This document shows, one piece after another, positions 541-21,833 of a stretch of 31,506 nt of DNA; within the stretch, counting starts at the first letter, position 1, and each line of letters starts with the position of its first letter. Both the position numbers and the translations under genes were made by a program. The notes beneath the pieces are model-generated. The model saw nothing but the letters and a program-made list of their open reading frames with translations. It was not told the DNA's origin and did no database searches. The DNA is from a virus: the IMG/VR virus record IMGVR_UViG_3300044630_000958, positions 1 through 31,506 of that record. One strand, written 5' to 3'.

Positions 541-558
541 GACGTGCTTGGACACAAT

Positions 559-3396
559 ATGGCGGATGTTCGTTTGCTTGAAGCAGTTGTCCCTTCAGAA
601 GAAGGGTTCTACTGCGTACTTGGTTTGAAGAATGGCTCACACTATTCACAGACCCACCACGAAACAATAGAAGAAGTAGAAGCACAAGCCGACCATCTGG
701 TGGCCAGCGGCGTAGATGTATTCTTTGGGTGCGGTAAGTTCATTACTGATGAAAACCGAGACGCATCCAATTGCGGTTCCTTACAGTCGTTTTTCTTGGA
801 CATCGACTGCGGCGAGGATAAAGCCAAGCCTGACAAGCGTGGGCGTATCAGGGGTTACATTGACCAGCCAACTGGGTTGCAAGCACTCAAGGACTTGTGC
901 AAGACGCTCAAGCTCCCACGCCCAACCATTGTGAATTCTGGCCGGGGCTGGCATGTCTACTGGCCGCTGACCGAGGCTGTACCCAAAGACAAGTGGCTAC
1001 CCGTGGCCGAGACATTCAAGGCCAAATGCCTTGAGCACAAGTTTATTGTTGACCCCGCCGTACCAGCGGATGCCGCAAGGGTGTTGCGTATTCCGGGAAC
1101 AAAAAACTTCAAGGACACGCCACCGCATGACGTTGTCCTTATGCACCTGTCTGAGCCGATAGCGTTTGATGACTTTGCCGCGCTCATGGGCCCGCTGGTT
1201 GACGCCAAGAAACCATATGCCGCCAAGGAATTAGACGACTTCACAAAAGCTGTTATTGGTAATAAGCAGTCACGGTTCCGCACCATCATGAAGAAGACTG
1301 CTGACGGCCAAGGCTGTGAGCAACTTAAGCTGTTGATTGAAGACCAAGAGAACGCTGAAGAACCTCTATGGCGGGCGGGGCTGTCCATCGCCCAGCATTG
1401 CGTAGACCGCGACAAAGCGATTCACATAATTTCCAAGAACCACCCGAAGTACAGCGCACGGGCCACGGAACGCAAGGCCAGCCAGATCAAAGGCCCGTAC
1501 ACCTGTGATACGTTTGACTCGTTTGTCCCCGGCATATGTGGCATATGCCCGCACCGAGGCAAGATCAAATCGCCCATTGTGCTTGGCCATGAGATCGCCA
1601 AATCAGAAGAAGGCGATGTTATTGAGTATCAGACCACAAGCATCGACCCACAGCCCGTTGAATTTGTAGTACCAAAGCTACCAAATCGTTACTTTCGTGG
1701 GAAGAACGGCGGCATCTACAAACATCTGAAGGAAGAGAACGAGGAAGGCGATGGGCCAGCAGTTGCCCTCATCTACGAGTACGACCTATTCGTCACCAAG
1801 CGTATGTATGACCCCGCACTGGGCGAGACCATCCTGATACGTAGGGTTCTCCCTAGGGACGGAGCCAAGGAATTCCCTGTGCCGCTGGTAGATGCGCTGA
1901 GTAAGGACGAGTTACGCAAGGTAGTGTCCTTCCACGGGATTATTGCTGGAGCTACTCAGATGGCATCAATTCTGGATTACCTGATGCAGTGTGCAAAAGA
2001 ACTACAAGTTTCACAAGAGGTGGAGATGATGAGGTTGCAATTTGGTTGGGCCGATGACGACGAGAAGTTCATTCTGGGTAACAGGGAGATTGGGGCAAGC
2101 TATGTGAAGTACAGCCCACCATCCAAGGCAACGAGGGACATTGCCCACGCCCTACGCCCAGTTGGTTCGCTGGATGAGTGGAAGGAAATCATCAACGTCT
2201 ACAACATGCCCGGGTTTGAACCCCACGCCTTTGCCGTGTTCTCAGCGTTTGGCGCACCCCTCATCAAGTTCATGGGCGTCAAGGGTGGCATCATCAACCT
2301 TATAAATAATAAATCTGGAACAGGTAAGTCAACCATACTTCAGGTTATGAACAGCGTCTGGGGACACCCCGACGAGCTGATGATTCAATGGCGGGATACG
2401 CTGAACGTGAAGCTGCACCGCATGGCCGTGATGTGTAACCTACCGCTGGGTGTGGACGAGATCACCAAGATGAGCGGCGATGACTTCTCCGACATGGCCT
2501 ACAGCGTGACCCAAGGCGCACCTCGCCGCAGGATGAAGGCGTCCACCAATGAGGAGCGCGAGTCCCAAGGGTTCTGGGCAACCATGATGGTGGCCACGTC
2601 CAACTCCAGTATGACCGACAAGCTGGAGTCCTTGAAGTCCACGTCCGAGGGTGAGTTGATGCGGTTGATGCAGTACAAGATTGACCCGACCAACAACCTA
2701 GACAAAGCCACGGCCAAGCATATCTTTGGTCGGTTGAACAGCAACTACGGGCTGGCTGGCCAACCATATGCACAGTACCTTGTACAGAATCTGGAAGAGG
2801 TGGTGGACACAGCGTTGAAAGTACAGGCCCGGTTTGACAAGGCGGTCAACATTGATACGCGGGAGAGGTTTTGGTCAGCAATGGCAGGAGCCAACCTAAC
2901 GGGCGCGTTGATAGCCAGCAAGTTGGGATTACATGAGATCAACCACAAGCGCGTGTTTGATTGGGCAGTGGCCGAGGTTTCAGAGATGCAGACTGCCACC
3001 AAGCTGTCGTTCAATGATTACGCTACCGTTGTTGGCGAATTCCTGCTGAAGCATAACCTGAACATTCTGGTGGTGAACAAGTTCAGCAGCTCCAAGTCTG
3101 GTATTGCTTCCACTCCGCTGGTTATGCCCCGTGGCCCGTTGGTTGTGAGACACGAGCCAGATACGCGCCGTATATACATCATCCGTCAGGAGTTGAAAAA
3201 CTTCTGCGTTCTCAAACAAGTCACGTTCAACGACCTGCTGTCTGGCTTGAACAAGACCGGAGCCTTCATCGCGGAAGTTCGCACCCGGTTGGATATTGGC
3301 ACGGACATCAGCGCTCCACCTGTTGTAGCTTTAGAGTTTGATTCAGATTTGCTGGGCGTTGACTTTAACTTTGCCACTCAGGGCGATGAAGATTGA
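559..3396 (+). CDS. Bifunctional primase-helicase (AEP-type primase fused to a P-loop helicase)
   Basis: This 945-aa replication protein should prime and unwind phage DNA at the fork. The N-terminal half carries archaeo-eukaryotic primase signatures: FFLDIDCG with metal-binding D81/D83, SGRGWHVYW with H132, and RVLRIPGTKN with R177. A short Cys/His cluster follows (C316, C327, C330, H332), probably zinc-binding. The C-terminal half has a Walker A NKSGTGKST (K590), a Walker B-like LGVDE (D633, E634) and a sensor-like stretch ATSN, resembling the DUF927/SF3-like helicase modules found behind AEP primases in phages and plasmids. The start is set at ATG 559, with GGA six bases upstream; an in-frame GTG at 544 lacks a ribosome site. 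It overlaps the next gene by 11 bases. The primase-helicase call is secure; the exact helicase family is not. Confidence 0.92.
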   Translation: MADVRLLEAVVPSEEGFYCVLGLKNGSHYSQTHHETIEEVEAQADHLVASGVDVFFGCGKFITDENRDASNCGSLQSFFLDIDCGEDKAKPDKRGRIRGYIDQPTGLQALKDLCKTLKLPRPTIVNSGRGWHVYWPLTEAVPKDKWLPVAETFKAKCLEHKFIVDPAVPADAARVLRIPGTKNFKDTPPHDVVLMHLSEPIAFDDFAALMGPLVDAKKPYAAKELDDFTKAVIGNKQSRFRTIMKKTADGQGCEQLKLLIEDQENAEEPLWRAGLSIAQHCVDRDKAIHIISKNHPKYSARATERKASQIKGPYTCDTFDSFVPGICGICPHRGKIKSPIVLGHEIAKSEEGDVIEYQTTSIDPQPVEFVVPKLPNRYFRGKNGGIYKHLKEENEEGDGPAVALIYEYDLFVTKRMYDPALGETILIRRVLPRDGAKEFPVPLVDALSKDELRKVVSFHGIIAGATQMASILDYLMQCAKELQVSQEVEMMRLQFGWADDDEKFILGNREIGASYVKYSPPSKATRDIAHALRPVGSLDEWKEIINVYNMPGFEPHAFAVFSAFGAPLIKFMGVKGGIINLINNKSGTGKSTILQVMNSVWGHPDELMIQWRDTLNVKLHRMAVMCNLPLGVDEITKMSGDDFSDMAYSVTQGAPRRRMKASTNEERESQGFWATMMVATSNSSMTDKLESLKSTSEGELMRLMQYKIDPTNNLDKATAKHIFGRLNSNYGLAGQPYAQYLVQNLEEVVDTALKVQARFDKAVNIDTRERFWSAMAGANLTGALIASKLGLHEINHKRVFDWAVAEVSEMQTATKLSFNDYATVVGEFLLKHNLNILVVNKFSSSKSGIASTPLVMPRGPLVVRHEPDTRRIYIIRQELKNFCVLKQVTFNDLLSGLNKTGAFIAEVRTRLDIGTDISAPPVVALEFDSDLLGVDFNFATQGDED

Positions 3397-3628: not shown

Positions 3629-3657
3629 GCCCCGCCGTAAAAAGCGGGGCGTTTTTT
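3629..3657 (+). terminator. Rho-independent terminator of the rightward (early) block
   Basis: A perfect 7-bp GC stem (GCCCCGC 3629-3635 with GCGGGGC 3644-3650) encloses an 8-base loop and is followed, after one G, by six Ts. It lies 21 bases after the last rightward gene and before the 3' end of the convergent late operon. Read on the minus strand the stem is followed by TAAGATC, not Ts, so it should stop mainly rightward transcripts. Confidence 0.9.
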
Positions 3658-6600
3658 ATTCCTGCGTGGCAAATTTTGCAAACGGATTTTCTTCAGTTGG
3701 TTTTTTATCACCCTTCTCCGTTATTTTCTTGATGTACGTATCAGTGAACAAATACCGCAGCTTGGGGTCTATATACAAACCATGATCAGCTTGTGCAGAC
3801 TTTTCTAACTTGCCCTTTATTGACTTGATCATAGATTCCGCGTCGAGTGCCAGCGTGGGGTACTTCCTGTTGAACTCCATAATTTTTTCAAGTGCTTCTT
3901 CGTTGCCTTTGGGATCGTTGGTCATAAATGTGAGCGCAAATATGTTCAACAAGTTCTGACGCTTGTCCACAATCTTTTGCTCTTGACCCTTAACCTTGAT
4001 ATTACGGAATTGAATTTCCGCAAGGTCAGCGGGCCGGATACCCAAAGACTGCATCATCAACTCAAACGGAGTGAACTCCTTCTTCATGATATCGCCGCCC
4101 AGAGTTAACGCCCCTTCTTTCCCATATCGAGTAGCAATCATTGGTTGCTTAGCAAAGCCGGGCAGCATCGTCTCAATTGCTCTGTCTGCATGACCCTTGT
4201 TATACAAGTCAACTGCACGGCCAGCGCTTACGGTTAGTCCAGCCAGCGGGCCAAGTATCCCAACAATGAAGCTCTGCACGGCGGCTTCTGCGTCTTGGTT
4301 GTCGCGGCCATCGCGCAGCCACATCCCATCAAGTTTTAAACGGCTGTGCAGGTCTACACCTGCGGCGTTGCCCACACCGCGAGACACCATAGTGCCCATG
4401 TTTACCCCGAACGTATCGACCGCCCAGTTTGCAAACTCAAGCTCAAAGTCAAACAGCTCGTCATCATCACCTGCGTTTGCTACAGCGTTAACGATAAAGG
4501 CAACTGTTGAGAAGCCCCAGAGACCAGTGACTCCAGAAAAGATAGCTGCCATGCCCATTGTTCCAACAAAGCGGGCGCGAGCTTCACGTTTCTCTGCTTC
4601 TGGCAACCGACCAAAAGAATTCCAAGCGTTACGCGCCAAGAAGAAAGTCATGTGCTGCGGAAACTGTTTAAATTGGAAGATGATCTTAGCTGGAGCGTTT
4701 TGCAAGAAACGAGGTTTGTTGGGCTCAGAGTAATCAAACATAGACTGCTGGGTCAAGTCTTTGGCTTCAGCAACTGCCTCGGCAAACGCTTGTTGCTGGT
4801 TTGGATACTTGGCTCGCTTCTCCATTGCAGAACGGAACGCAGACATAGCCACAATCTCGCGGTTGAACCGTTCGGCGTGGTGGAATGCGTAAGCCACAAT
4901 CTGCATGGCCCGGTTGGGGATGCTGCTGTAATCAGATGTTGGACTGGACGCCAAACCTGATTGGTCATAGGCAGCAGTTATATCAATCAACCCGTCAGCA
5001 ACAAACCGGTTGTACGCTGCTCTGTCCACAGCGGACATAGTTTTTGATCTATCCAACGATGGGGACAACAACTTTGAGTCGATGACTCGCCCGCCTCTTT
5101 CTATCCCAAACCCAGTGGCCGTAATTTGGGCCATTGTTTTGAAGGTGTTATAGAGCACGCGCCCTGTTGCCTCTGTGTAACCCATCTTGGGGTTCGCACG
5201 GATTTGTTGACCGATAAGTGTGGGCACGCCAATCATTGCGCCGCCCATCACGTTGACTACAGCCGATCCAATAGATGTCAAATAGTAGATAAACCCAATG
5301 TTTGATAGGTACGATATCCATTTTCCCGTATCTGTCGGATTTAACATTGCTACTAAGCGCTTGTCGATCTCATCAATGTAGTCACGCAGTTCATCGTTTT
5401 CTCTGACAAGGGCGGGGTCAAACGCCGCGCCGGGAGTGAAGCGTCCTTTTATCTGCGCACGAGCGGCATCCAACTGAGAGAACATTTCAGGTGAATACTC
5501 AAACCGCGACATCTGGTACGCCATACTGAACGATGACGATGAAAAACTACGGAGCGCGTCCTCAGAATAACCAGCAATACTGTTGCGGTGCACAAAGGCG
5601 TTACGCATACTGCGGTCTGGCTGGTTGGCCAGATACGTTTGATACAGGTTGTCCTTCAGTTCAGTACGACGTTTTTCTGCTTCAGCTTGGGTAAGCCCAG
5701 TCATGTCCATGCTGTCAACACCAGCAAACGCAGACTTCAAGAACGCAGACTCACGCGCATGGAAGTCCATCTGCTGCTGGTAGTCGTTACCAATATTCTG
5801 GCCAATGGTGGAACCCAAATGTGGGTCACGTTTCAGTCGTTCATCCCGGTGCATATCACGGGCTGCTTCAGACTCAAACATGTAGTATTCACGGTTCTGG
5901 CCTTTGCCCACCTGATACCAGAAGCGGCCAAAGCGCATCAACGGGAAGTATGGGCCAGCCCGCTTACCTTTTTCAAACTCGTTACGAATCTCTGTAATAC
6001 TAGCCTCAGACACACCAAGTTGTCGCATCTGAATAATGCGTCGGTTCATCAAACGCTTGTACTGGCTGTACCTGCGTTCATAGAAATTACGCACTTCACG
6101 ATAGACGGTCTTGGCCTCGGGGCTCAGCGCCCGCCAGTCATTCATCAGCTTCGCGTTGTTTGTGCGTTGGGCCAGCGTGGCTTTGTCTGGATCAACTTCC
6201 AGAATAGTTGCACTGTGCATAACAACACCGAGCTTGCGTGACATCTCAGGGTCGGCGGATTGCAGGCTTTCCCACTTGCGGGATATGTCACCAGATTCTT
6301 TAAGTATCTGCGACTTACGGGCGAGGAACTTCTCAGTCACATTGATGAAGTTGCCAATCTGTCTGATACGCCCGCCCACCAAGTCATTGATTTGGCGAAG
6401 AGTCAATATACCAAGATACGCTTTACGCGCATCCGCATTCATGCTGCGCAACTCACGCATCTTCCCCGATGTCCATGTATCAGCCATCATCCAGCGGCGG
6501 ATTGTTGAAGGCTGGTTTGGCATACCGGGTGGCACAGTAGTGCGGCGGCGTGGGCCTTTTGTGGCCATCGCTTTGGGTCCGGTGGTTACATTTACACCCT

Positions 6601-9600
6601 CCAAGGACATCGTGCCCGACATCATTGCATCAGCAGCAAACATGACTTCAACCATGACGTTGCTGGGGTCACCGGGCTTTACCTTGAACATCTCCCGCAC
6701 AGAGTTTGTGAAGCGATTCCACAAAGAGAATGGTGCAGCTTTGTAACGAATAGAACGCAACAATACTTGCAGCTCTGGATTTGTTAACGCTTCAGAAACA
6801 AACTCATGTAAGTCTTGCAGCCCATACACAGTGTCAACTGTTATACCCTTCTGCTCCAGCAGACCCTTAGAGTACTGATACAACTCGTTGAGGCGCTCGT
6901 AACCTTGGCGTTGAACACCAACAAGCCTGTCGGCGTTGTCAATTAAATGAGACGTTGCGGCATGTATAGATTCATGCAGTAACAAATGATTGGTCAGCCT
7001 ACCTTCACCACGACGTATAACTATGGTGTCGCTGGCTGGGTCGTACTTGCCATCCCACGAAAACTCACGATTTACCAAATCTCCTACACTGTCAAGAAGT
7101 TGTTGGTTGGATTGAGTTCCGCCGTTCTTTTTCAACGTACCCCGCATGGTATCCAGCGCGGCGATTAAACTACTCAATTCACCAGACTTGAGCCCGGCAA
7201 TAATTTCAGCCTGCTGCTCTTGTGGATACAACGTAACAACCAAATCTCGTAGGGCTTCTATCCGTTCGTTGAGAGACTCGGTTACCTGTGGGTCATTGGA
7301 CAGTGACTCCAATGTGTTTTCATTTATCAACCGCGTTTTGGCCGTAAAACCAGTATCTAAGATACGTTGGGCCAGTTCAGAGTAATAACGGTTATTTTTT
7401 GCTTGGGCAAGAAGTTCAAGAGCCGCCCGTGTGTCGCCTCTTTGCAGTGTGCGTACGATTGATGGGTGCAGTTCTGTAAGCACCTCGGTCAACATTTGGA
7501 CAGTTGGTAAGTTCTTGGTATTGGCTTCGGTGAATGGCTCTAAAGTTTCTTCGCTTTCACCAGCTTCCGCTTCCGCTTCCTGCATACTTGCAGCGCGTTC
7601 CTTACGAGTTTTCTTTCTACGCTGGGCTTGCTTTAATGCTTCACGTTCTTCTTTTTCCCGGCTACGTTCTCTTTTTTGCACTGCTGCAAGCTTATCTTCA
7701 TACGCTTTCTTTGCTGCTGCGTATTTTTCATTCTCAGCTGCGTTTTGTTTATGTTCTTCAACAAGCTCATCCAACAGCTGCAAAGTTTCTTCGTTCAGGT
7801 TTTGTTTAATCCACTCCCGAAAATCTTTTGCGTATTGGCCACCTTCTTTGTAGAACAAAGAACCAGCCCCATGCCCTTTGGAGTCAATCTCAAAGTACGC
7901 CAAATCAAACGCCAAATCTCTAAGCGCTTCACCAAATGTAGAGCGATGTGTGTTTGACAGATATGTAATAGCTGCTTGAGCACCAGCCGAAATCTTTTTA
8001 CCCGAGTCTCTTAACTGTTTGAGCACCAAAGCGGCTGAACGTAATTTGTTGTCACTTATCTTGCGTACTATTTCGCGTGTGACGGTTTCTGGCTCACGCG
8101 GTTTATCCGCAACCATAGAATCAAACGACCGCGTGGTTGTAACCCCAGATTTAATATCCTCTTCGTAAGGTATTACACCCCTGAACTCACCAGTGGCTGG
8201 TGCTCGACCAAGGGGCCTTTTTATGCGCACGCCACCTTCAGTACCAAAAGCTTGGCTGAAATGCTCAAGCGTTTCGTCCCTGAAAATATCCATGCCTCGT
8301 CTTGTAGACAAATCTGGCAAACCGTACTTTTTATACAAGGCTGGGTGGTTGCTTCTGTCTGTGCTTTGCAACGCGCCAACCAACTCGCGTAGTTTGCCCA
8401 CCCCACCAACACGGTCGGCCAAATATTTAAGAGCTACGCTGACGCCAGTAGAAGAAAACTCCCCCGGTTCTGTCAGATCAAACTCCAGCAGTTCGTTTTC
8501 AGCTGTGTTCTTTGACTCTCCGTGGCGGGTTTTTTCTCCTTCTTCTTGGTTTTGTGACTCAACCACGTTGAAGAATGAAGATATGAGCTGCCCTTCTGGT
8601 GTTCTACGAACGTGGTCTATTGCTTCTTCTTCACTTTCTACGGCCTTTACAGACTTCTCAGGCGGTGGCTTGCCTTGGCGGGTAGTTTCAGCTGGCTTGT
8701 CTTCTTCCAGATCAGCGTAGTTATCTTCTTGCTCTTTTTCGGCTTTACGTTTTTCAGCTTCTTGTCGGGCTTCTTGAATTTGCTGTCTACGTTCGTCTGT
8801 TTTAGCTGCTTCAGCCGCAGCTTCTTCTTCGTCAAACATGCCCTCTTGTTCAGCTTTCAGCTCTACGCGCTGAATTTCTTGCCGCTGACGTGGAGTAGGC
8901 GTTTCTATGCCGTTATCAAAATCGGCTTCTGCGTCTTGGAGCTGCTCACGCACACCTTGCAAAGTTCTTTCGTACCCGTTTATGGTGTCGGTCACCGCAC
9001 GAATATCTTCAGATGTGGGTCTGTACCCCACCTCACCAGCAGGGCGAGCAGCAAGACCTTGCAACCGGGCCAACTCAGCGCGGGCTTTTGCAAGTTCACC
9101 TTCAACGCGCTTTCTCTCAGCCTTAAAGAGCGCAACACGTTCTTTTGCAGTCATTGAAGCCCCAGCTTGCTGGTTGCGGCCTTTGTTAGCAGCTTCAATT
9201 TCTTTGGATTTTTCTGTTGCCCGCATACGAGACTTGTTCAATTCATCTGCGTTTGCGGCGTTGAACACGTCTTCAATATCTTCGGGTTTCTCTGTACCAA
9301 CGTCAGGCTGACCTTCTGGTTGGCCAAACAATTTACCCTGCATAGCGCGAGGCTGGCCCGTACGCTTTTGCACGATGTCGATTGCGTGGTCAATCTCAGC
9401 GTTTGTTTCCTGTAGAAGACGTTGGAGGATTGAATCTCTGTTTTTAAGTGCTTGGCCAGATGTCATACCAGCAGGACGTCTGCTGATAACTTCTGCGTCG
9501 GTATAACCGCCAGAGTCAACCTTCTCCTGCATACGAGCGCGTTTGTTTTCCAATTCTTGGATTGCGCCATCTGGGTTTTGGCCCGACAAAGCCATAGCGT

Positions 9601-11341
9601 TTGTTGCGAGGCGAGTGGCAGCTTGGAACGTACCAAACAAGTTCCCTTGCATTGCACGGGGCTGACCAACATTTGGCTCAAGTCGAGCCAATACTTGCGA
9701 ACCATCAAACACAGGGTTCTTAAGTTGGTTGGCCACACCTTTGCTGCGGATCAAACCCATGTTGGCGTCAACGACTTCAGCCAGATTTTTCTGGATGGTC
9801 TTACGCAAGTTCATGCCCGCTTGATCTATCTGGCCAGATGGCAGAGAGTTGTACTCATCCCGCAATTCTGTGTACTGCCGTACGAAATCGCTGTAGGCTT
9901 CAAGTGACTGAGTGGGCGCTGCTGGCGCACGGGCAGCAGGGGCGCTTGGTGTTGCGGTGGTTGCAGCGCCAGTGTCTACATCTGTAAACAAACCGGGTGG
10001 CTCGTTGGAGGGCGGTAATGTTTGATCAGCGTCACCGTACTTTGCAGATTGCGTAGAAGTTTGCAGTGCTTCATCAGCGCGTTGCTTGTACAGACCAGTT
10101 TGAGATTTTGGTGCGGCTTGCTGGCCTTCTTGATCTGCAAACAGATCGTCTGGCTCTTGCATATCCCGCGTCAAAGTGTCGAGGATTGTTTGGCGTTCTT
10201 GGTCAGTAGTATCTGGAGACTTAAACTTTTCTGCAAGAGCGCCTTTTAATCCGCTTACACCACCCACTGGAGCGCCACCTAACATACCAAGGATAAGGTT
10301 AGCGGCGGAGTCTTCACCAATCTCTTTGTTTTTTGCTACATTCTGGATCGCAATATCAGCAGCTAAGCCTTCAGTGGTTTCTTGAAGACCTTCTTCACCC
10401 ATACCAATAACTGTACCGGCGGCGGTTCTACCAAGAACGGATTTGCCCGCTGCCTTTTTAAGCATGTCGTCCAACGCACCTGTGGTCAACTTAGCGGTAA
10501 AACGATCCCCAAATGTGGCAACCAAACCCTGCATAATTGCGCCGGATTCCGCTGCCTTACGAGTTGCCAAATCCTTGGCTTCTGCTTGACCCACACCTTG
10601 TTTTATTAGCGACCCATAAAACGGACTGTTCTTCATCAAGTCTTCATGGCTCATATTGCCAATAAACTCTTCTGCTTTTGTAGCGGCTTCGTCAGCAGCC
10701 ATAGCCCCGCCCGCAACACCACCGGCGGTTGGACTCTTGGTTACTACAGCGGTGGCAATAACAGGGGCCAACGAACCAAATATGCTTGCCATCTGCATGA
10801 CGTAACCGCGCACAGTTGGGTTTTCCCCAAAATCTATTTCACCTTTGAAGATGTTCCCTGATATTTGAGACTCTCGTTCCGCTTTTTTATTTTGCTCTGA
10901 TACGCTGGCTTCGATACTTCTTTGAGTTTGTTTACCAAGATCTCGTAGATACGCAGCACCGGGTATTTCGGGTATTTTTGCAAGAGTGCGTTCTACGGCT
11001 ACAGCATCTTCAGCTTGTTTGTCCTTACCGCGAAGTAACTCATCAACTTTCCGCGTTAAAACTTTACCGGCGAGCAAAGGCATTGGCTCGCGTACATCAA
11101 CCTCTCCTGTCGCTGCTTTGCGGATAGCGCCTTTTGCGGCCTCTTCTCCGCCCTTGGGTATGCTGGCAAACCCAGAAATAGTAGAGCCAAGAAACTTTTT
11201 ACCGAAGTCCGCAGCATCAGTCCAAATACTGTTGTCTTCTTGTGGTTTTTGCGGCGCGGCTTCTTCTTGTGGCTGGGCAAATCTGGCAAACGGATTTTGC
11301 TCTGCTTCTGGTTGAGCAAATTTGGCGAAAGGGTTTGCCAT
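3656..11341 (-). CDS. Giant polyvalent internal virion (ejection) protein with HExxH zincin motif (2561 aa)
   Basis: This is the last and largest gene of the late operon. Such giant proteins are packed in the head and ejected ahead of the DNA in podoviruses (T7 gp16, N4 vRNAP as analogues); this role is inferred from size and position. Visible parts in order: two NPFA(K/R)FA peptides (residues 3-9 and 16-22); a hydrophobic segment near 178-201; a Gly/Ala-rich region to about 370; a disordered Gln/Pro-rich part with two QPRAMQG peptides (near 559 and 662); charged coiled coils at roughly 730-880 and 1180-1265; a metallopeptidase signature HESIH (1456-1460, catalytic E1457); long helical segments; and near 2210-2235 KIIFQFKQFPQHM, reminiscent of the LPD38-type large-polyvalent-protein domain, with hydrophobic stretches nearby. 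NPFAKFA recurs at 2552-2558, three residues from the end. The start at 11341 is two bases after the previous stop. Confidence 0.85.
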   Translation of the reverse strand: MANPFAKFAQPEAEQNPFARFAQPQEEAAPQKPQEDNSIWTDAADFGKKFLGSTISGFASIPKGGEEAAKGAIRKAATGEVDVREPMPLLAGKVLTRKVDELLRGKDKQAEDAVAVERTLAKIPEIPGAAYLRDLGKQTQRSIEASVSEQNKKAERESQISGNIFKGEIDFGENPTVRGYVMQMASIFGSLAPVIATAVVTKSPTAGGVAGGAMAADEAATKAEEFIGNMSHEDLMKNSPFYGSLIKQGVGQAEAKDLATRKAAESGAIMQGLVATFGDRFTAKLTTGALDDMLKKAAGKSVLGRTAAGTVIGMGEEGLQETTEGLAADIAIQNVAKNKEIGEDSAANLILGMLGGAPVGGVSGLKGALAEKFKSPDTTDQERQTILDTLTRDMQEPDDLFADQEGQQAAPKSQTGLYKQRADEALQTSTQSAKYGDADQTLPPSNEPPGLFTDVDTGAATTATPSAPAARAPAAPTQSLEAYSDFVRQYTELRDEYNSLPSGQIDQAGMNLRKTIQKNLAEVVDANMGLIRSKGVANQLKNPVFDGSQVLARLEPNVGQPRAMQGNLFGTFQAATRLATNAMALSGQNPDGAIQELENKRARMQEKVDSGGYTDAEVISRRPAGMTSGQALKNRDSILQRLLQETNAEIDHAIDIVQKRTGQPRAMQGKLFGQPEGQPDVGTEKPEDIEDVFNAANADELNKSRMRATEKSKEIEAANKGRNQQAGASMTAKERVALFKAERKRVEGELAKARAELARLQGLAARPAGEVGYRPTSEDIRAVTDTINGYERTLQGVREQLQDAEADFDNGIETPTPRQRQEIQRVELKAEQEGMFDEEEAAAEAAKTDERRQQIQEARQEAEKRKAEKEQEDNYADLEEDKPAETTRQGKPPPEKSVKAVESEEEAIDHVRRTPEGQLISSFFNVVESQNQEEGEKTRHGESKNTAENELLEFDLTEPGEFSSTGVSVALKYLADRVGGVGKLRELVGALQSTDRSNHPALYKKYGLPDLSTRRGMDIFRDETLEHFSQAFGTEGGVRIKRPLGRAPATGEFRGVIPYEEDIKSGVTTTRSFDSMVADKPREPETVTREIVRKISDNKLRSAALVLKQLRDSGKKISAGAQAAITYLSNTHRSTFGEALRDLAFDLAYFEIDSKGHGAGSLFYKEGGQYAKDFREWIKQNLNEETLQLLDELVEEHKQNAAENEKYAAAKKAYEDKLAAVQKRERSREKEEREALKQAQRRKKTRKERAASMQEAEAEAGESEETLEPFTEANTKNLPTVQMLTEVLTELHPSIVRTLQRGDTRAALELLAQAKNNRYYSELAQRILDTGFTAKTRLINENTLESLSNDPQVTESLNERIEALRDLVVTLYPQEQQAEIIAGLKSGELSSLIAALDTMRGTLKKNGGTQSNQQLLDSVGDLVNREFSWDGKYDPASDTIVIRRGEGRLTNHLLLHESIHAATSHLIDNADRLVGVQRQGYERLNELYQYSKGLLEQKGITVDTVYGLQDLHEFVSEALTNPELQVLLRSIRYKAAPFSLWNRFTNSVREMFKVKPGDPSNVMVEVMFAADAMMSGTMSLEGVNVTTGPKAMATKGPRRRTTVPPGMPNQPSTIRRWMMADTWTSGKMRELRSMNADARKAYLGILTLRQINDLVGGRIRQIGNFINVTEKFLARKSQILKESGDISRKWESLQSADPEMSRKLGVVMHSATILEVDPDKATLAQRTNNAKLMNDWRALSPEAKTVYREVRNFYERRYSQYKRLMNRRIIQMRQLGVSEASITEIRNEFEKGKRAGPYFPLMRFGRFWYQVGKGQNREYYMFESEAARDMHRDERLKRDPHLGSTIGQNIGNDYQQQMDFHARESAFLKSAFAGVDSMDMTGLTQAEAEKRRTELKDNLYQTYLANQPDRSMRNAFVHRNSIAGYSEDALRSFSSSSFSMAYQMSRFEYSPEMFSQLDAARAQIKGRFTPGAAFDPALVRENDELRDYIDEIDKRLVAMLNPTDTGKWISYLSNIGFIYYLTSIGSAVVNVMGGAMIGVPTLIGQQIRANPKMGYTEATGRVLYNTFKTMAQITATGFGIERGGRVIDSKLLSPSLDRSKTMSAVDRAAYNRFVADGLIDITAAYDQSGLASSPTSDYSSIPNRAMQIVAYAFHHAERFNREIVAMSAFRSAMEKRAKYPNQQQAFAEAVAEAKDLTQQSMFDYSEPNKPRFLQNAPAKIIFQFKQFPQHMTFFLARNAWNSFGRLPEAEKREARARFVGTMGMAAIFSGVTGLWGFSTVAFIVNAVANAGDDDELFDFELEFANWAVDTFGVNMGTMVSRGVGNAAGVDLHSRLKLDGMWLRDGRDNQDAEAAVQSFIVGILGPLAGLTVSAGRAVDLYNKGHADRAIETMLPGFAKQPMIATRYGKEGALTLGGDIMKKEFTPFELMMQSLGIRPADLAEIQFRNIKVKGQEQKIVDKRQNLLNIFALTFMTNDPKGNEEALEKIMEFNRKYPTLALDAESMIKSIKGKLEKSAQADHGLYIDPKLRYLFTDTYIKKITEKGDKKPTEENPFAKFATQE

Positions 11342-11343
11342 GT

Positions 11344-14300
11344 TTAACGCCCCAATACTTTAGCTGCTGCTCCTGCACCAAACACATCGTCAAAATATTT
11401 TCTGTTTTTAGTTGAAGGGTTTGATTTCAACATGTTCACGGCCTCCGCATCTGGAGTCCTACCTACATCCGCAACAGATTTACCCGGTGCTGGTGTACCG
11501 GGAGCAGCCTTTGAAGTGATACCAGAAGCGCGAGTTTGTCTGTACTCTTCTATAAGTTTTTGGCGCTCTGCTTCTATCTGTCCATCCAACACGGCTATTT
11601 CTTCCGGTGTTTTGCCGGGCATACTCTTCTGCAACATCAACATTTCTGTGCGGTCGGTAAGATCTTTTTGAAACTTGGCGTCGTTTTCAAATGTTTTGTC
11701 TGGTCCAGTGTACCTAGCGCCGTAGCGTGCTGCGCCAATTTCAGCCATAGCTTCTTTGTACTCTGTAGGTGTAAGCTTTCTACCCATACGCTTTTCGTAA
11801 TCGCCAAGCATACGTTCAAATTCACCGGGTTTGTTGGCCGTATCACGATGAGCTTTGGCGCTGATGTTTGCCGCTGCAATAGTGGCATCCTTACCAAGCT
11901 GTGTATTTTGAAGTTGTGAGTGCATCTTGGCTGTGTCACCAGCAACGCCAGCTTTAAGTTCAGCGGCTCTTGCTTTTGCGGTGCGTCCTTTATCAGCTTC
12001 GGCAATTGCCTTATCAGTCATACCGTTGTTGTACAACTCGCTTGCTGTGGCAAGCTGAATCTCAGACTGACGGAGCAAGCGGTCTGCTTCTTTGTTCTCT
12101 TTAGCAACACGACTTACTTCACCAACAAATGCCTTAGTAGAAGCCTTGGCTCCTTCGCGAATATTTTTAGCGCCAATCATTTCCGCAGCAGCCAGTAGAG
12201 CGCCAAGACCTCTAGCCTCATCCATGTTCTTGCCAAGGTTGGCACGCTCAGCCTTTGTCTCTTCCAGATACTTAGGCAAAACGCTTGGTTCGTACAAACC
12301 TTTGATCATGTCCCGTTGCGCCACAATATCTTTTCTCCGGTCTTCTGGAGAAGGCATTGTGGTTGCTTGATCTATAAAACCAAGTTGTTCTTCACGTGCT
12401 TTTTCAGCCCTATCTAAATAAGAACCACCATTAGCAAACGCAACGATACCGCCATTGGCAGCGGACATGATGTTTTCTTGTTGCTCCGCAGGAATTTGGT
12501 CAAACGCACTGCCAAGACCCGCAGTCAAAGATTTAGACTGAGCAAGCTCAGCCATCCGCTCGTCGATTGCGGCCACGGTGTCCATGTCCCGGCGGTCCAA
12601 AGCGTTTTCACGGGCTGCTTGTAGTTGTTCTGGGCCAAGTTTGTCGATGATGCTTTCTACATTGCCTTGACTGGTAACAGAGCCTTGGTCGCCAGCATAG
12701 GTTTTGACTTCACCGCCTTCGGCCATAAACTTGCTCAGACCATACATGCCCATGCCAAGACCAGCAATGTCTTGCAAACCAGAACCTTGAGGCTGGTACA
12801 TGTTGGTAACACTTGAAGAGCCAGTGGGCGTACCGCGCAACAAGTCGGAGTAAAAACCCACTTGCTTGTACGGGTGGCTTTGTTGATTAACAAAGTTTTG
12901 ATACGCAATGTCCGCATCTCTTTGGCGCTGCCCTTGTTCCATTCCGCCGTAAGCAGAGCGCAACTTGTTGATGTCCATACCTTGCTGGAACTGCTGACCG
13001 CCAAGCTGACCAAGCTGTCCGGCGGATTGCAAAGCGGTTTGAAGACCCTGCATCCCCAAGCCCGCGCCGTACTGACGAGACTGCTCACCCAACTGTTGGG
13101 CGGCTTGACCATACTGAGCGCCGAGACCCGCAGCTTGAAGACCTTGGCCAGCGCCAAACTGACGTGATTGTTCGTACATCTGTTGGGCATTCAAGCCCAT
13201 TTGTTGATTGGCCAACTGCGCTTGGAGGTTTTGCCCTGCACCCAATTGCTGGACTCCAAGGTTGGCCGCAAGGTTCTGCGAGCCAACGTTGAAACCCATT
13301 TGTTGATTCGCCAAAGCCGCTTGCATCGCTTGCTGGGCATTCATGCCCATAGCTTGATTTCTGGCTGCTTGGTTTTGTACGTTTGCTTGTTGTTGGCTGC
13401 TTAAATTGGAAAGGGCAGTTTGTAGACCCGTTTGAGCGCCAAGTTGTTGAACACCAAGCGCAGCGCCAAGGTTTTGCCCGCCAACAGTAATACCAGCTTG
13501 TTGGTTGGCTTGTTGAGCTTGCAAACGAGCTTGTTGCTCAGCATTGAACTGTTGCTGTGCTTGGCCGTAAGCAGACTGAAGTCCCTGCGCTTGAATGTCG
13601 CCTTTTTGTTGAGCAAGATTGCGGGCAGCTTCAGATTCCATAATGGCTTGACGAGAGCCGCCAAACGCACCCGCGCCTACAGCTTGGGCACTACGCCCCG
13701 TTCTTGCAACGTCTGCTTGACGTTGAGCTTGACGTTGCTGAACATCCACCACACTCTGCATGTATGGGTTCATGTAGGCTTCTGCTGAGCCGGGGCGGGT
13801 AAAGCTTTGAGTGCGGACACGTTCCGCTGGCCCCATCTGGTATTGCTGCAAGTTGGGGTTATAGGCTGTTTGCGCCGCACCCATTTCTGCTGCGTCATAC
13901 CCTATTGACCGCACATCTTGTGGGCCTTTCATTTGATATTGCTGCAAACCTTGGGCTTGGACATTCGCAGGATTGAACTGGCCAGCTTGGTATGCGTCAG
14001 GAGCTTGGAATTGGTTGGCAAACTGACCGGCTTCGTAGTTCGTGCCCATAGCACGTCGTCCAACGTCCCCAGCCAAACCGGTAGCCGTGCCCAACTGAGC
14101 CGCAGGCCCCATTGTCCTTGCGTCTTCCATAGCGTCTTTTTGCATGGCACCAAAATCAGCCGTGCGATCTCCGCCGTATTTCTCGTATGGAGCATTGGAT
14201 AACGCTTGACCCCTAGCCAAAATTTCTTTGGCGTGCGGCTTTGCCCACGCGGGCAAATCCGTAGTTTGGGTTTGGGATGTTTGGGCAGGGGCTTTTGATC

Positions 14301-14397
14301 CGCCGCCACCATAGATGCGCCCGCCGGGTTTTAAACGGGTAACTGATTCGCCAAGCGGCTCGCCAAATGCTTCAAGTTGTCTACGGGAGTAATTCAT
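11344..14397 (-). CDS. Gln-rich internal virion / ejection protein candidate (1017 aa)
   Basis: The start ATG overlaps the stop of the acetyltransferase gene (ATGA) with GGAG upstream. Residues up to about 110 form a Gly-rich head. About 120-490 is strongly Gln/Ala/Gly-rich with imperfect repeats (GQNLGAALGVQQLGA and SQNLAANLGVQQLGA; LANQQMG twice; EQSRQ(F/Y)GAG twice), which predicts long helical or coiled-coil rods. About 560-680 has GGE/GGIVAFANGG patches that I associate with phage internal proteins. The rest is charged alpha-helix (AEKAREEQLGF, LLRQSEIQLATASELY). It has no enzyme motif. Its place between a 477-aa internal protein and the giant protein parallels the gp14-gp15-gp16 order of T7-like phages, so I infer a head-internal, ejected protein; sequence similarity to T7 proteins is not visible. 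Confidence 0.75.
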   Translation of the reverse strand: MNYSRRQLEAFGEPLGESVTRLKPGGRIYGGGGSKAPAQTSQTQTTDLPAWAKPHAKEILARGQALSNAPYEKYGGDRTADFGAMQKDAMEDARTMGPAAQLGTATGLAGDVGRRAMGTNYEAGQFANQFQAPDAYQAGQFNPANVQAQGLQQYQMKGPQDVRSIGYDAAEMGAAQTAYNPNLQQYQMGPAERVRTQSFTRPGSAEAYMNPYMQSVVDVQQRQAQRQADVARTGRSAQAVGAGAFGGSRQAIMESEAARNLAQQKGDIQAQGLQSAYGQAQQQFNAEQQARLQAQQANQQAGITVGGQNLGAALGVQQLGAQTGLQTALSNLSSQQQANVQNQAARNQAMGMNAQQAMQAALANQQMGFNVGSQNLAANLGVQQLGAGQNLQAQLANQQMGLNAQQMYEQSRQFGAGQGLQAAGLGAQYGQAAQQLGEQSRQYGAGLGMQGLQTALQSAGQLGQLGGQQFQQGMDINKLRSAYGGMEQGQRQRDADIAYQNFVNQQSHPYKQVGFYSDLLRGTPTGSSSVTNMYQPQGSGLQDIAGLGMGMYGLSKFMAEGGEVKTYAGDQGSVTSQGNVESIIDKLGPEQLQAARENALDRRDMDTVAAIDERMAELAQSKSLTAGLGSAFDQIPAEQQENIMSAANGGIVAFANGGSYLDRAEKAREEQLGFIDQATTMPSPEDRRKDIVAQRDMIKGLYEPSVLPKYLEETKAERANLGKNMDEARGLGALLAAAEMIGAKNIREGAKASTKAFVGEVSRVAKENKEADRLLRQSEIQLATASELYNNGMTDKAIAEADKGRTAKARAAELKAGVAGDTAKMHSQLQNTQLGKDATIAAANISAKAHRDTANKPGEFERMLGDYEKRMGRKLTPTEYKEAMAEIGAARYGARYTGPDKTFENDAKFQKDLTDRTEMLMLQKSMPGKTPEEIAVLDGQIEAERQKLIEEYRQTRASGITSKAAPGTPAPGKSVADVGRTPDAEAVNMLKSNPSTKNRKYFDDVFGAGAAAKVLGR

Positions 14398-14858
14398 ACA
14401 GGCTCCGTGCTCAGTATCTTGGTAAAAAGTTTGTCGGTATGTTTGTACCCAAGGTACTCAAACAACCGAGAGTTATCCAAATGGATTTTGGTGTGCATGA
14501 TGATTCTGTTCACACCAGCTTTTTTGAGCACGTCTTCTGCGTACTGGAATAATCGTATTCCTATACGGCCTTGACGGAATTCTTTCTTGACGAAATACAG
14601 GTCTTCAAAGGCTGTTTTGCAAGACCTGTAGTGTAAATGCGGTTGCACAATAAAGATAGCGTACCCGATCAAATCACCGTCACTGCGGCAAGTGATGCAC
14701 TGGAGCATGTCAGCTACAGCCAGTCGGCCATACGCCTCGTAATCCGGTAGCAAGGGAAAGTCCTTGGTAACGCAAAGCTCTTCGTAGTGCTCAGGTAGCA
14801 GCAATTTCAACTCCTCGATGAAGGTGGAGGGGTCTTCATTTGCATACTCTACCGTCAT
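14394..14858 (-). CDS. GNAT-family N-acetyltransferase (154 aa)
   Basis: The protein has the GNAT core. Strand 4 (EDLYFVKKEF, about 85-94) runs into the acetyl-CoA loop RQGRIG (95-100) and helix 3 (IRLFQYAEDVLKKAG). A further strand (RIIMHTKIH) and the C-terminal SRLFEYLGYKHTDKLFTKIL segment are typical of the family. It would transfer an acetyl group from acetyl-CoA to an amine; the substrate is unknown. Both ends overlap neighbours by ATGA (14855-14858 and 14394-14397), so it is co-translated with two internal virion genes. A virion protein or a host factor met during infection is a plausible target, but this is inference. The loop is slightly degenerate (R98 where many members have Gly), as I recall for other phage GNATs. 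Confidence 0.85.
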   Translation of the reverse strand: MTVEYANEDPSTFIEELKLLLPEHYEELCVTKDFPLLPDYEAYGRLAVADMLQCITCRSDGDLIGYAIFIVQPHLHYRSCKTAFEDLYFVKKEFRQGRIGIRLFQYAEDVLKKAGVNRIIMHTKIHLDNSRLFEYLGYKHTDKLFTKILSTEPV

Positions 14859-18981: not shown

Positions 18982-19446
18982 TTAGGCTACAAGGCCGGGA
19001 AGATAAGTCGTTTTACCAGCCACTTTGGTAGCGGTCAACTCCTGTTGCTTCAGGTTGCTTGGGTCATAAGAGACATGCACCCAGCCACTGTCAGGGATGC
19101 CGGGGGTGTAGAACTCAAGAATGAGTTGTGTGTATTCTAGGTTATCCATGATCCATTGAGCAAGCTCTGCGTTGGCAACACCGGGTATCTCAATATCGGC
19201 TGCTCGGCCAAGGCAATGGTCTGAGGTCTTTGAGCCTCCGGTGGCTTGGTTGACGGCTGGAGCGCGGAACCCTGAGTTCACCTTGACGCCTTTGCCAAAG
19301 TGGTCGCGCACGGGCTGGAGGACTTTCTCGCACAGCAGGCGCAGAGCCTCGATCTCGGCTTCGCCGGGAATGTTGTCCAAATCATTGCGCAAGGCGGTGT
19401 CGGACTTGGTCAGTTCATGGAGGGAAAAGTTAGCGGTCAGATTCAT
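18982..19446 (-). CDS. Endolysin: zinc peptidase of the M15 type (154 aa)
   Basis: This cell-wall peptidase should cut peptide stems of peptidoglycan to release progeny. The M15 signature is complete: NSGFRAPAVNQATGG, then SDHCLGRAADIEI with zinc ligands H77 and D84, then GWVHVSYD with ligand H124. It has no signal peptide or membrane segment, so export depends on a holin, and the candidate holin is two genes upstream. Length is normal for single-domain phage M15 endolysins. The ATG overlaps the Rz stop (ATGA, 19443-19446) with AGGAGC upstream. It is the last gene of the lysis cassette. The exact bond cut (L-Ala-D-Glu or D-Ala-D-Ala type) cannot be told from sequence. Confidence 0.92.
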   Translation of the reverse strand: MNLTANFSLHELTKSDTALRNDLDNIPGEAEIEALRLLCEKVLQPVRDHFGKGVKVNSGFRAPAVNQATGGSKTSDHCLGRAADIEIPGVANAELAQWIMDNLEYTQLILEFYTPGIPDSGWVHVSYDPSNLKQQELTATKVAGKTTYLPGLVA

Positions 19447-19892
19447 TGGGCGCTCCTAGCGTTGTTGTAAAGGGTGATGCAGGCGTTGAGCTTTTCAATG
19501 GCTCTGTTGCCTTCGTCGGTTATGGCGACAAGAGCTTTAGCAGTCTCTCGGTCAAGTTCGGCTGATGGCGCTCCTCCACTATCTCCGGCGGCAACGGCGG
19601 TATCTGCGGCGGCTGGTACGGGGCAGGTCGTTTTGACGCGCAACCGCAAAGCGCCAGAGTCAATAGCAGCATCGCGCTCTTTTGTGGCAAGTTTGGCTTT
19701 TTCATTTGTCTTCCTCAATGCTTCAGCGGTTGTTGTTACGGCAGCGGCTAAAGCCTGCTCCTTAGCCCGTGCTTCGGTGTTTAAACGATCAACTTCCACC
19801 TGCTGGGCTTCTCTCTCGACATACTTGCCGTAGAAATACCCGCCGCCAAATGTCAGCAGCAGGGCAATCAATCCAGAGAGTAAACCCTTCAT
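19443..19892 (-). CDS. Rz: Rz-type inner-membrane spanin (149 aa)
   Basis: An N-terminal membrane anchor (residues about 3-22, LLSGLIALLLTFGGGYFYG) is followed by a periplasmic coiled coil (about 28-75) rich in Ala/Glu/Lys. The conserved-looking C-terminus ALVAITDEGNRAIEKLNACI is typical of phage Rz proteins. With Rz1 it would fuse inner and outer membranes at the end of lysis. The start overlaps the stop of the holin candidate (ATGA, 19889-19892). A proline-rich lipoprotein gene, Rz1, is fully embedded in the +1 frame. One Cys (in TTCPVP) could form an interchain disulfide. Confidence 0.9.
   Translation of the reverse strand: MKGLLSGLIALLLTFGGGYFYGKYVEREAQQVEVDRLNTEARAKEQALAAAVTTTAEALRKTNEKAKLATKERDAAIDSGALRLRVKTTCPVPAAADTAVAAGDSGGAPSAELDRETAKALVAITDEGNRAIEKLNACITLYNNARSAQ
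19520..19705 (-). CDS. Rz1: Rz1-type outer-membrane spanin lipoprotein, embedded in Rz (61 aa)
   Basis: The gene lies wholly within Rz in the +1 frame, the classical nested arrangement. The ATG at 19705 has AGGAAG four bases upstream. The product has a basic start (MKKPNLPQKS), a hydrophobic signal (AMLLLTLAL), a lipobox LCGC with Cys22 as the lipidated residue, then a short Pro-rich periplasmic part (RPAPYQPPQIPPLPPEI). This matches o-spanins, which are lipidated, sorted to the outer membrane and bind the C-terminus of Rz. The overlap, lipobox and prolines together make chance very unlikely. Confidence 0.9.
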   Translation of the reverse strand: MKKPNLPQKSAMLLLTLALCGCASKRPAPYQPPQIPPLPPEIVEERHQPNLTERLLKLLSP

Positions 19893-21299: not shown

Positions 21300-21833
21300 T
21301 TATTGCTTTCTGAAATACCAAACCTGACCGCTAATGATTTTTAATTCTGGTATTACTCCAAGCGCCTTGAGAGCTTCTTTGGTTGCACGCACCACCTCTG
21401 GAGTGTATGCTTCATGTCCTGCTAAGATGCCCCCGGGTCGCACCTTGGGAAACCACTTAGTTACGTCATCAAACTGTTCGGCGGCTGTGAAGCCCTTATC
21501 CAAGTACACAAGATCGACACTTGCATCCAACATTTTTGATGCCGCTAAGTCGGACCGCTCTACCCTAAGTTCAATTCTATCGGCAAAGTTGCTTTTGCTG
21601 ATACGCCTTTTAGCAATATCTTCATTCATTCGACTCATTTCAGCTGTGACAACGTAGCCGCCATGCAAAGGATCAGTGTACGTTTCATAGGAATCAATAC
21701 CAATCAAGCGCATTGCTGGGAAGCTCGCGGCCAATGCCAACAGGTTAGTCGCACGCAATACGCCAACCTCTACTAACACACCAGTGTCAGCGATGCCGGG
21801 AATAATCTGTTGCAAACAATCTTCAGATCGCAT
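21300..21833 (-). CDS. Class I SAM-dependent methyltransferase (Methyltransf_24-like, 177 aa)
   Basis: The protein has a Rossmann-type methyltransferase core. The SAM-binding strand and loop is VLVEVGVLRATN (19-30); the acidic residue after strand 2 is D47 (LIGIDSYE). DLVYLDKGF (107-115) and WFPKVRPGGILAGHEAY (127-143) match the D-x-VYLD and LkpGG-xxxGHD pattern of small-molecule or sugar O-methyltransferases often found with glycan genes. The first motif is degenerate, with Ala where Gly is usual. The start is ATG 21833, overlapping the previous stop (TAATG) with GGAG eight bases upstream; a TTG at 21866 is rejected. Lying directly behind fibre and adhesin genes, it may modify a virion component or a host surface glycan; the substrate is inference. 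Confidence 0.85.
   Translation of the reverse strand: MRSEDCLQQIIPGIADTGVLVEVGVLRATNLLALAASFPAMRLIGIDSYETYTDPLHGGYVVTAEMSRMNEDIAKRRISKSNFADRIELRVERSDLAASKMLDASVDLVYLDKGFTAAEQFDDVTKWFPKVRPGGILAGHEAYTPEVVRATKEALKALGVIPELKIISGQVWYFRKQ

What the first reader, a model, noticed from the sequence alone, without database searches (positions are those of the whole stretch)
6950..7010. HExxH metallopeptidase signature inside the 2561-aa protein
LLLHESIHAATSHLI at residues 1453-1467 is a zincin-like motif in a helical setting, preceded by a short beta-rich segment (DTIVIRRGEGRL). Polyvalent phage proteins that enter with the DNA are known to carry peptidase domains. This one could cut host targets at entry or process the internal proteins during maturation.
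Basis: partly seen in the sequence, partly recalled or inferred. Interest (0 to 1): 0.55.

Follow-up and report, generated by a model that had tools for sequence, protein, structure and literature searches.

The report
Zinc-peptidase domain in phage entry protein
A giant protein that this bacterial virus probably carries in its shell and injects with its DNA contains a zinc-peptidase-type domain of a kind already described in other phage proteins; whether it still cuts, and what, is untested.

Summary
HESIH is real (P0001 residues 1456-1460, window 6962-6976, minus strand) and not chance: in 20 of 20 homologous viral contigs H1456, E1457, H1460 and a downstream Glu (E1513) are invariant. AlphaFold2 predicts a zincin core (pLDDT 86.8, pTM 0.85) with E1513 on the expected helix. 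Tyr1506 lies at E-7, the spacing of oxyanion Tyr and third zinc ligand in PPEP-3. Fold matches that span the domain are lethal factor, PPEPs and the N4 virion RNA polymerase C1 domain, all below Z 8. The kind is known: zincin-like MPTases are the commonest domain of phage "polyvalent" proteins (Iyer et al. 2017). New here: a vRNAP-like giant protein with no RNAP found; related domains in ejection proteins labelled "endolysin" (phiKMV gp37, PhiM1 gp48); two active-site layouts that never co-occur (0 of 119 domains; 18 have neither; tree test inconclusive); and P[RK]AM linkers that are missing in the three clade members with the other layout. Zinc, activity and substrate are not shown. Favoured function: self-processing after packaging or ejection (inferred).

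The parts
3656..11341 (-). 2561-aa giant polyvalent (PLxRFG) protein, P0001; apparently the last gene of the minus-strand late gene run, starting 2 nt after the stop of the 1017-aa ORF 11344-14397
6542..7456 (-). zincin-like domain as modelled (residues 1296-1600)
   Evidence: AF2 on 19-sequence alignment A3: pLDDT 86.8, pTM 0.85
7355..7390 (-). N-terminal core helix, residues 1318-1329
7322..7339 (-). core strand 1, residues 1335-1340
7064..7291 (-). helical insert, residues 1351-1426
7010..7057 (-). core strands 2 and 3 (residues 1429-1434, 1439-1444)
6938..6991 (-). HExxH helix, residues 1451-1468
6962..6976 (-). HESIH, residues 1456-1460 (two predicted zinc His, general-base Glu)
   Evidence: H, E, H identical in 20 of 20 homologs
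6824..6826 (-). Tyr1506, at E-7, candidate oxyanion tyrosine
   Evidence: 16 of 16 homologs with an aligned residue, 4 of 20 gapped; same spacing as Tyr190/Glu197 of PPEP-3
6803..6805 (-). Glu1513, predicted third zinc ligand, on helix 1511-1520
   Evidence: 20 of 20 homologs; helix
6791..6793 (-). Glu1517, at E+4; second-shell role is inference
   Evidence: E+4 is Glu in 43 of 51 domains with Tyr at E-7
10013..11266 (-). N-terminal region, residues 26-443, similar to the N-terminus of N4-like virion RNA polymerases
   Evidence: PHROG 2206 E 7.7e-13, profile 88-492; clade HMM hits Pollock and N4 vRNAP, E 8.4e-10 and 8.7e-7; best reversed decoy 2.1, best short six-frame ORF 0.4
6002..6445 (-). 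LPD39 domain, residues 1633-1780
   Evidence: Pfam PF18858 E 1.2e-18, 68 bits against cut-off 27
3758..5956 (-). PLxRFG domain, residues 1796-2528
   Evidence: NCBIfam NF032893, 442 bits against cut-off 100
6557..6583 (-). linker TGPKAMATK directly after the zincin core (residues 1587-1595)
9323..9358 (-). linker motif GQPRAMQGKLFG, residues 662-673
9632..9667 (-). linker motif GQPRAMQGNLFG, residues 559-570
6509..6526 (-). GMPNQP, residues 1606-1611, conserved between zincin and LPD39 domains
   Evidence: G1606, N1609, P1611 in 20 of 20; PNQP exact in 18 of 20 homologs

Best explanation
The motif is the active-site helix of a zincin-like metallopeptidase domain (residues about 1296-1600), of the lineage found in N4-type virion RNA polymerases and other podovirus ejection proteins. 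Predicted site: H1456 and H1460 plus E1513 hold zinc, E1457 is the general base, Y1506 stabilises the oxyanion. The domain belongs to a giant protein encoded at the end of the late genes. Its N-terminal region resembles that of virion RNA polymerases, no polymerase segment was found, and it ends in LPD39 and PLxRFG domains. Most likely the protein is packaged and ejected with the DNA and the zincin cuts its own linkers to free the flanking domains. Shown by computation: conservation, predicted fold, homology. Inferred: packaging, ejection, zinc, catalysis, self-cleavage. The confidence given is for the domain's identity and relatives; for self-cleavage I give about 0.4.
For: Invariant H/E/H/E in 20 of 20 homologs. 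AF2 core topology matches the polyvalent MPTase core described by Iyer et al. (passage). Profile hits to two solved ejection proteins, 8vb2 (E 2.1e-6) and 9sfn (E 9.3e-5), both aligned over HExxH and the later Glu; 9sfn is a near copy of phiKMV gp37. VIA: lethal factor Z 7.4 over 154 residues, rmsd 4.7; N4 vRNAP 9pnr Z 6.4 over residues 2124-2368, the stretch that the N4 paper calls C1 (2124-2375); PPEP-2 Z 6.1. Profile iteration joins 24 domains of 23 proteins out of 25 put in, H/E/H/E intact in 24 of 24. In a six-frame library of 2886 ORFs every hit of the starting profile up to E 1 was an HExxH-bearing ORF.
Against: No Pfam family covers the domain at its cut-off. All VIA Z values are below 8, the level the tool calls middling; the top row is an unrelated helical match (8ubb, Z 7.6, model 55-148); plain Foldseek against PDB gave nothing under E 0.001 (best row lethal factor, E 0.26). 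The starting profile does not reach N4 vRNAP directly (E 0.13). No zinc, activity or virion data were available for this phage. N4 vRNAP is reported packaged unprocessed. 4 of 20 homologs lack the E-7 Tyr.
Confidence: 0.8

Rival explanations
1. Zincin fold kept as a structural or packaging module with little or no peptidase activity.
For: N4 vRNAP is packaged whole and the region with its MPTase is needed for encapsidation (Iyer et al., passage). The E-7 Tyr is absent in 13 of 24 diverse domains, N4 and phiKMV among them.
Against: H, E, H and third Glu are intact in 24 of 24 diverse domains, and the third Glu in 119 of 121 of the wider set (its HExxH was partly a selection criterion). A scaffold need not keep a general-base Glu. 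The window's protein keeps Tyr1506.
Confidence: 0.3
2. Effector protease: the ejected protein cuts a host protein at entry.
For: Offered as an option by Iyer et al. (passage). Nearest folds are effector or secreted endopeptidases.
Against: The domain lies in the middle of a 2561-aa chain next to conserved linkers; it recurs in phages of very different hosts and in many giant viral ORFs, which fits a phage-internal substrate better. No host target identified.
Confidence: 0.2
3. Cell-wall enzyme: homologous ejection-protein domains are annotated 'endolysin' or 'exotransglycosylase'.
For: Record annotations; the PhiM1 paper labels TEP Asp268-Asp528 endolysin/exotransglycosidase-like (passage).
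Against: That range holds the HExxH and the zincin-like alignment at 373-510. Pfam finds no lysozyme or SLT domain in phiKMV gp37, Lelidair gp49 or the window protein. A zinc endopeptidase acting on wall peptides is not excluded.
Confidence: 0.06
4. Chance HExxH in a helix.
For: 113 of 5000 shuffles contain one.
Against: Invariance, third Glu, predicted fold and homology.
Confidence: 0.01

Closest known systems
Zincin-like MPTase of polyvalent proteins (Iyer et al. 2017, PMC5512222; passages read)
   Same: Core of N-terminal helix, three strands, HExxH helix and Glu helix; embedded in a giant phage protein with LPD domains; N4 vRNAP member included
   Different: Window domain has a helical insert of about 76 residues after strand 1 and sits next to LPD39 and PLxRFG with no RNAP found; which of their 12 clades it falls in was not tested
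N4 virion RNA polymerase C1 domain (PDB 9pnr 2124-2368; PMC12633501, passages read)
   Same: HExxH plus later Glu, fold match Z 6.4, related N-terminal region
   Different: N4 protein carries an RNAP and lacks Tyr at E-7 (Ser there, Trp at E+4)
Ejection proteins PhiM1 gp48 (8vb2) and phiKMV-type gp37 (9sfn)
   Same: Sequence-detectable relatives with HExxH and later Glu in virion core proteins
   Different: 1263 and 1337 aa; no Pfam domain found in phiKMV gp37 or in the PhiM1-like Lelidair gp49; labelled endolysin-like
Lethal factor and PPEP-1/2/3 endopeptidases
   Same: Predicted fold; third-ligand Glu; Tyr at E-7 as in PPEP-3
   Different: Secreted bacterial proteins; no sequence-profile match; distance from first motif His to Glu is 57 here, 44 in PPEP-3
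Serratia phage Parlo gp81
   Same: Zincin (1146-1323), LPD39 and PLxRFG-type C-terminus in one chain
   Different: Also SLT, helicase and methyltransferase matches and a weak GNAT match

Membership tests
Polyvalent-protein zincin-like MPTase | HExxH in first C-terminal core helix | tested here: met
Polyvalent-protein zincin-like MPTase | Glu ligand in the second core helix | tested here: met
   E1513 in helix 1511-1520, 20 of 20 homologs; ligation itself not measured
Polyvalent-protein zincin-like MPTase | N-terminal helix and three-stranded sheet | tested here: met
   predicted only
Polyvalent-protein zincin-like MPTase | Part of a large multidomain phage protein | tested here: met
   LPD39 and PLxRFG hits
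Polyvalent-protein zincin-like MPTase | Zinc binding and peptidase activity | not testable with these tools
   needs protein
Lethal factor / PPEP type peptidases | Same fold | tested here: inconclusive
   Z 5.1-7.4 with 143-159 residues aligned, under the tool's level of trust
Lethal factor / PPEP type peptidases | Tyr seven residues before the third-ligand Glu | tested here: met
   Y1506/E1513; PPEP-3 Tyr190/Glu197
Lethal factor / PPEP type peptidases | Sequence-profile match to a family model | tested here: not met
   no such Pfam hit listed for the window domain (limit E 10) or among the 19 members (limit E 1); HMMER's filters drop most hits above about 0.1
N4-type virion RNA polymerase | T7-like RNAP module | tested here: not met
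   Pfam and PHROG hits cover the N-terminus and the zincin, not the RNAP part; the separate Pfam RNA_pol search was uninformative because its controls did not ring
Lysozyme / transglycosylase (label of homologs) | Pfam lysozyme or SLT domain | tested here: not met
Tox-MPTase4 (PF15640) | Score above curated cut-off | tested here: not met
   12.3 bits against 25
PLxRFG domain protein (NF032893) | Score above curated cut-off | tested here: met
   442 against 100 bits

The most novel reading that the evidence does not exclude
The zincin is a self-processing protease of an ejected phage polyprotein. Its cleavage sites are the repeated linkers P[RK]AM at residues 561, 664 and 1589, the last one directly behind the peptidase. 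Enzyme and sites co-evolve: the three clade members whose active site uses the other layout (no Tyr at E-7, Tyr at E+4) lack P[RK]AM at all three linkers and carry A[KR][AP]S at the first two and A-K-x-x at the third. More widely, phage ejection zincins come in two mutually exclusive active-site layouts.
Probability: 0.15. Interest if true: 0.75.

Novelty: new member of a known kind. Interest (0 to 1): 0.42.

Why it matters
It places a peptidase-type domain in virion proteins that phages probably push into cells with their DNA, across N4-like, phiKMV-like and crAss-like phages, and suggests that the 'endolysin domain' label of well-studied ejection proteins should be re-examined. It also gives cheap, concrete tests of whether giant ejected proteins cut themselves, a proposal made in 2017 (Iyer et al.).

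Tried and rejected
Chance motif: rejected. Pfam membership of the domain: nothing over a cut-off. Plain Foldseek against PDB: no hit under E 0.001. An ADP-ribosyltransferase reading of residues 1080-1196: only a weak PHROG 3895 hit (E 0.013), not pursued. Relatives in the GTDB genome contigs: 23 pattern stretches, none a relative. Single-protein scans with the Presley and phi14:2 domains found only the copy of their own phage, and with phiKMV seven near-copies and two distant contigs.

Linker hypothesis, results against it: a general test whether the stretch behind the zincin resembles upstream parts of the same protein more than of other proteins was negative for 81 other domains (own mean 23.6, cross 23.9; own higher in 39 of 81) and weak in the clade (own higher in 12 of 21). 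Among the 18 clade ORFs without the switch, 10 have P[RK]AM at three or more places, 6 at two and 2 at one; the copy behind the zincin is in 18 of 18, while sites 1 and 2 also read EARAM, EARGM, QPRGM, QPNAM or PARGM, and L023 has no alignable site 1. L024 lacks the E-7 Tyr but keeps Glu at E+4 and its three P[RK]AM. So the co-variation rests on one clade and probably one switch.

Two-layout pattern, caution: Fisher p 2.4e-18 on 119 domains treats relatives as independent. On a tree built without the columns around the Glu only 3 independent pairs stood on supported branches and the sign test was inconclusive (median p 0.5). 18 of 119 domains have neither feature. The set includes near-identical copies (for example L002/L003/L012; phiKMV with L076 and L133).

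Rows dropped: one search dropped 3 aligned segments without HExxH and left 2 of 121 out of the table (one Asp, one 31-aa ORF that is probably chance, though it is among the 76 of 80 profile hits). One search left out L003 and L022, which run off their contigs.

Full report
The observation. The 2561-aa ORF lies at window 3656-11341 on the minus strand. HESIH is at residues 1456-1460, window 6962-6976. The composition-based expectation for HExxH in this protein is 0.023, and 113 of 5000 shuffles contain one, so the motif alone proves little.

Conservation. Two scans of viral contigs returned 20 loci with relatives of residues 1360-1600, 49-79% identical; some are near-identical to each other. 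In a full-length alignment with all 20, H1456, E1457, H1460, E1513 and F1514 are identical in 20 of 20; Y1506 in the 16 of 16 with an aligned residue (4 have a gap: L009, L010, L022, L024); H1512 in 19 of 20.

Fold. AlphaFold2 on residues 1296-1600 with 19 sequences gave pLDDT 86.8 and pTM 0.85. Order of elements: helix 1318-1329, strand 1335-1340, a helical insert 1351-1426, strands 1429-1434 and 1439-1444, HExxH helix 1451-1468, helix 1475-1497, a short turn starting at Y1506, and helix 1511-1520 with E1513. This is the core that Iyer et al. 2017 (PMC5512222, passages read) describe for polyvalent MPTases: N-terminal helix, three strands, HEXXH helix, Glu helix. I had no coordinates, so the zinc site was not measured.

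Structural neighbours. VIA-align listed lethal factor structures at Z up to 7.4 (154 residues, rmsd 4.7), N4 vRNAP 9pnr at Z 6.4 (model 1-298 on chain 2124-2368), PPEP-2 6.1, PPEP-3 5.9 and PPEP-1 5.3. The first row, 8ubb at Z 7.6, and many others match mainly the helical insert. All values are below 8, which the tool calls middling. Plain Foldseek against PDB had no hit under E 0.001; its best row was lethal factor at E 0.26. The case rests on coherence: in the 50 rows shown, those that span most of the domain are lethal factor, PPEPs or N4 vRNAP. In the viral library 8 hits are under E 0.001, among them three LPD-type proteins and the phi14:2 structural protein; a virion RNA polymerase (Vibrio phage phi 1) follows at 1.2e-3 and internal core proteins at 1e-2 or weaker.

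Sequence relatives. The 10-sequence profile A1 hits two solved virion ejection proteins, PhiM1 gp48 (8vb2, E 2.1e-6) and 9sfn (E 9.3e-5), each aligned over the HExxH and the later Glu. phiKMV gp37 matches 9sfn over all 1337 residues as a near copy. I then put 25 proteins, mostly chosen because a search had hit them, into iterated profiles. This joins 24 domains from 23 of the 25, including N4, Presley, Pollock, CB1, MIF8 and Vibrio phi 1 vRNAPs, phiKMV-like and Phimunavirus ejection proteins and crAss-like phi14:2 and cr1_1; phi14:2 gp077 and the Atu_ph08 giant protein, which have no HExxH, did not join. H, E, H and third Glu are intact in 24 of 24. In a library of 2886 six-frame ORFs the starting profile hit only ORFs with HExxH (limit E 1). 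N4 itself joined only after iteration; the starting profile gave it E 0.13.

Labels. Records call the phiKMV-type proteins 'internal virion protein with endolysin domain'. The PhiM1 paper (PMC11440229, passages read) places an endolysin/exotransglycosidase-like domain at Asp268-Asp528 of its tetrameric ejection protein. The zincin alignment, at 373-510, lies inside that range. Pfam found no domain (limit E 1) in phiKMV gp37 or in Lelidair gp49, a Phimunavirus homolog. I read this as a likely mislabel, not proven. N4 vRNAP as a zincin carrier is in print (PMC5512222, PMC8472413, PMC12633501; passages).

Architecture. Residues 26-443 match the virion RNA polymerase PHROG at its N-terminus (E 7.7e-13). 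A profile of this region hits Pollock vRNAP (E 8.4e-10), N4 vRNAP (E 8.7e-7), the Atu_ph08 giant (E 8.5e-10) and several giant ORFs of the pattern scan, while the best reversed decoy is at 2.1 and the best short six-frame ORF at 0.4. No hit covers an RNAP. LPD39 and PLxRFG follow the zincin. Parlo gp81 has zincin, LPD39 and the PLxRFG-type end plus SLT, helicase and methyltransferase matches. So this is a vRNAP-like giant protein without a recognisable polymerase, at the end of a gene run that holds virion structural, tail-fibre and lysis genes. That it is packaged and ejected is inferred from relatives.

Active-site layouts. PPEP-3 has Tyr190 in the oxyanion hole and Glu197 as third ligand (PMC12828418, passages), a spacing of 7, as Y1506/E1513. 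Of 121 domains with HExxH, 119 have Glu in the third-ligand column. Of these 119, 51 have Tyr at E-7 and none of the 51 has an aromatic at E+4 (43 have Glu); 50 lack that Tyr and have Tyr or Trp at E+4; 18 have neither. HExxH is a selection criterion for the 80 pattern loci. The tree-based test was inconclusive. The exclusion is a strong regularity whose number of independent origins is unknown. In the window's own clade L009, L010 and L022 show the second layout.

Linkers. P[RK]AM occurs at residues 561, 664 and 1589; the composition-based expectation for the protein is 0.046 copies, and 0 of 5000 shuffles have three. In the 21 clade ORFs it occurs 45 times in 50,419 aa; in the other giant ORFs 2 times in 199,996 aa. 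It is absent from L009, L010 and L022, where the first two linkers read A[KR][AP]S and the third starts A-K. These are the three members with the other layout. Of the other 18 ORFs, 10 have three or more copies, 6 two and 2 one, always including the copy behind the zincin. The switch is probably one event. A general test in other proteins was negative. The first two sites continue with QGx[LM]F, which recalls the sliding-clamp binding motif (recalled, not tested), so a binding-motif reading is open.

Mechanism. I favour self-processing (about 0.4): a peptidase in mid-chain, conserved linkers, the proposal of Iyer et al., and the co-varying linker. Against it stands N4 vRNAP, packaged whole; activity could begin only after ejection. 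A structural role (0.3) and a host target (0.2) remain open.

Verdict. A confirmed observation, a partly supported interpretation, and a new member of a known kind, with two side observations (layouts, linkers) that deserve a test. I found no description of the two layouts or the linkers in the passages I read or in the listings of paper searches; none of these searched for exactly these two features (119 looked for the terminal peptides), and the library misses most subscription papers.

Noticed in passing
window 11276-11335 and 3668-3688 (residues 3-22 and 2552-2558 of P0001): The same short peptide stands twice at the N-terminus (NPFAKFA, NPFARFA) and once at the C-terminal tip (NPFAKFA). 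In relatives the peptide differs (GPWDKY, NFFDQFD and others) but the two ends agree in 13 of 19 proteins (score 26 or more; 5 of 19 show no match, L008 a weak one): own mean 29.2, cross 19.8, 0 of 10,000 permutations, relatedness not corrected. Possibly a packaging or partner-binding tag.
   Followed up: partly
window 9323-9358 and 9632-9667: Repeated linker GQPRAMQG[NK]LFG; its QGxLF part resembles a sliding-clamp binding motif (recalled, not tested).
   Followed up: partly
L051 (Vibrio phage phi 1 vRNAP): Two tandem zincin domains with intact H/E/H/E in one virion RNA polymerase.
   Followed up: no
L013, L026, L047, L048: Ejection proteins annotated 'internal virion protein with endolysin domain' carry the zincin-like domain; Pfam finds no lysozyme or SLT in the two tested, L013 and L026.
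   Followed up: partly
window 21300-21866, minus strand: ORF resembling a methyltransferase (PHROG 2675, E 1.3e-16) among the late genes.
   Followed up: no
window 14394-14858, minus strand: Acetyltransferase-like ORF (PHROG 1249, E 1.4e-13) among the late genes.
   Followed up: no
window 18982-19892, minus strand: Endolysin (PHROG 894) followed by an Rz-like spanin.
   Followed up: no
window 544-3396, plus strand: 950-aa ORF with primase/helicase matches (PHROG 8841, 1139; best hit PHROG 25314 of unknown function), on the strand opposite to the giant gene.
   Followed up: no
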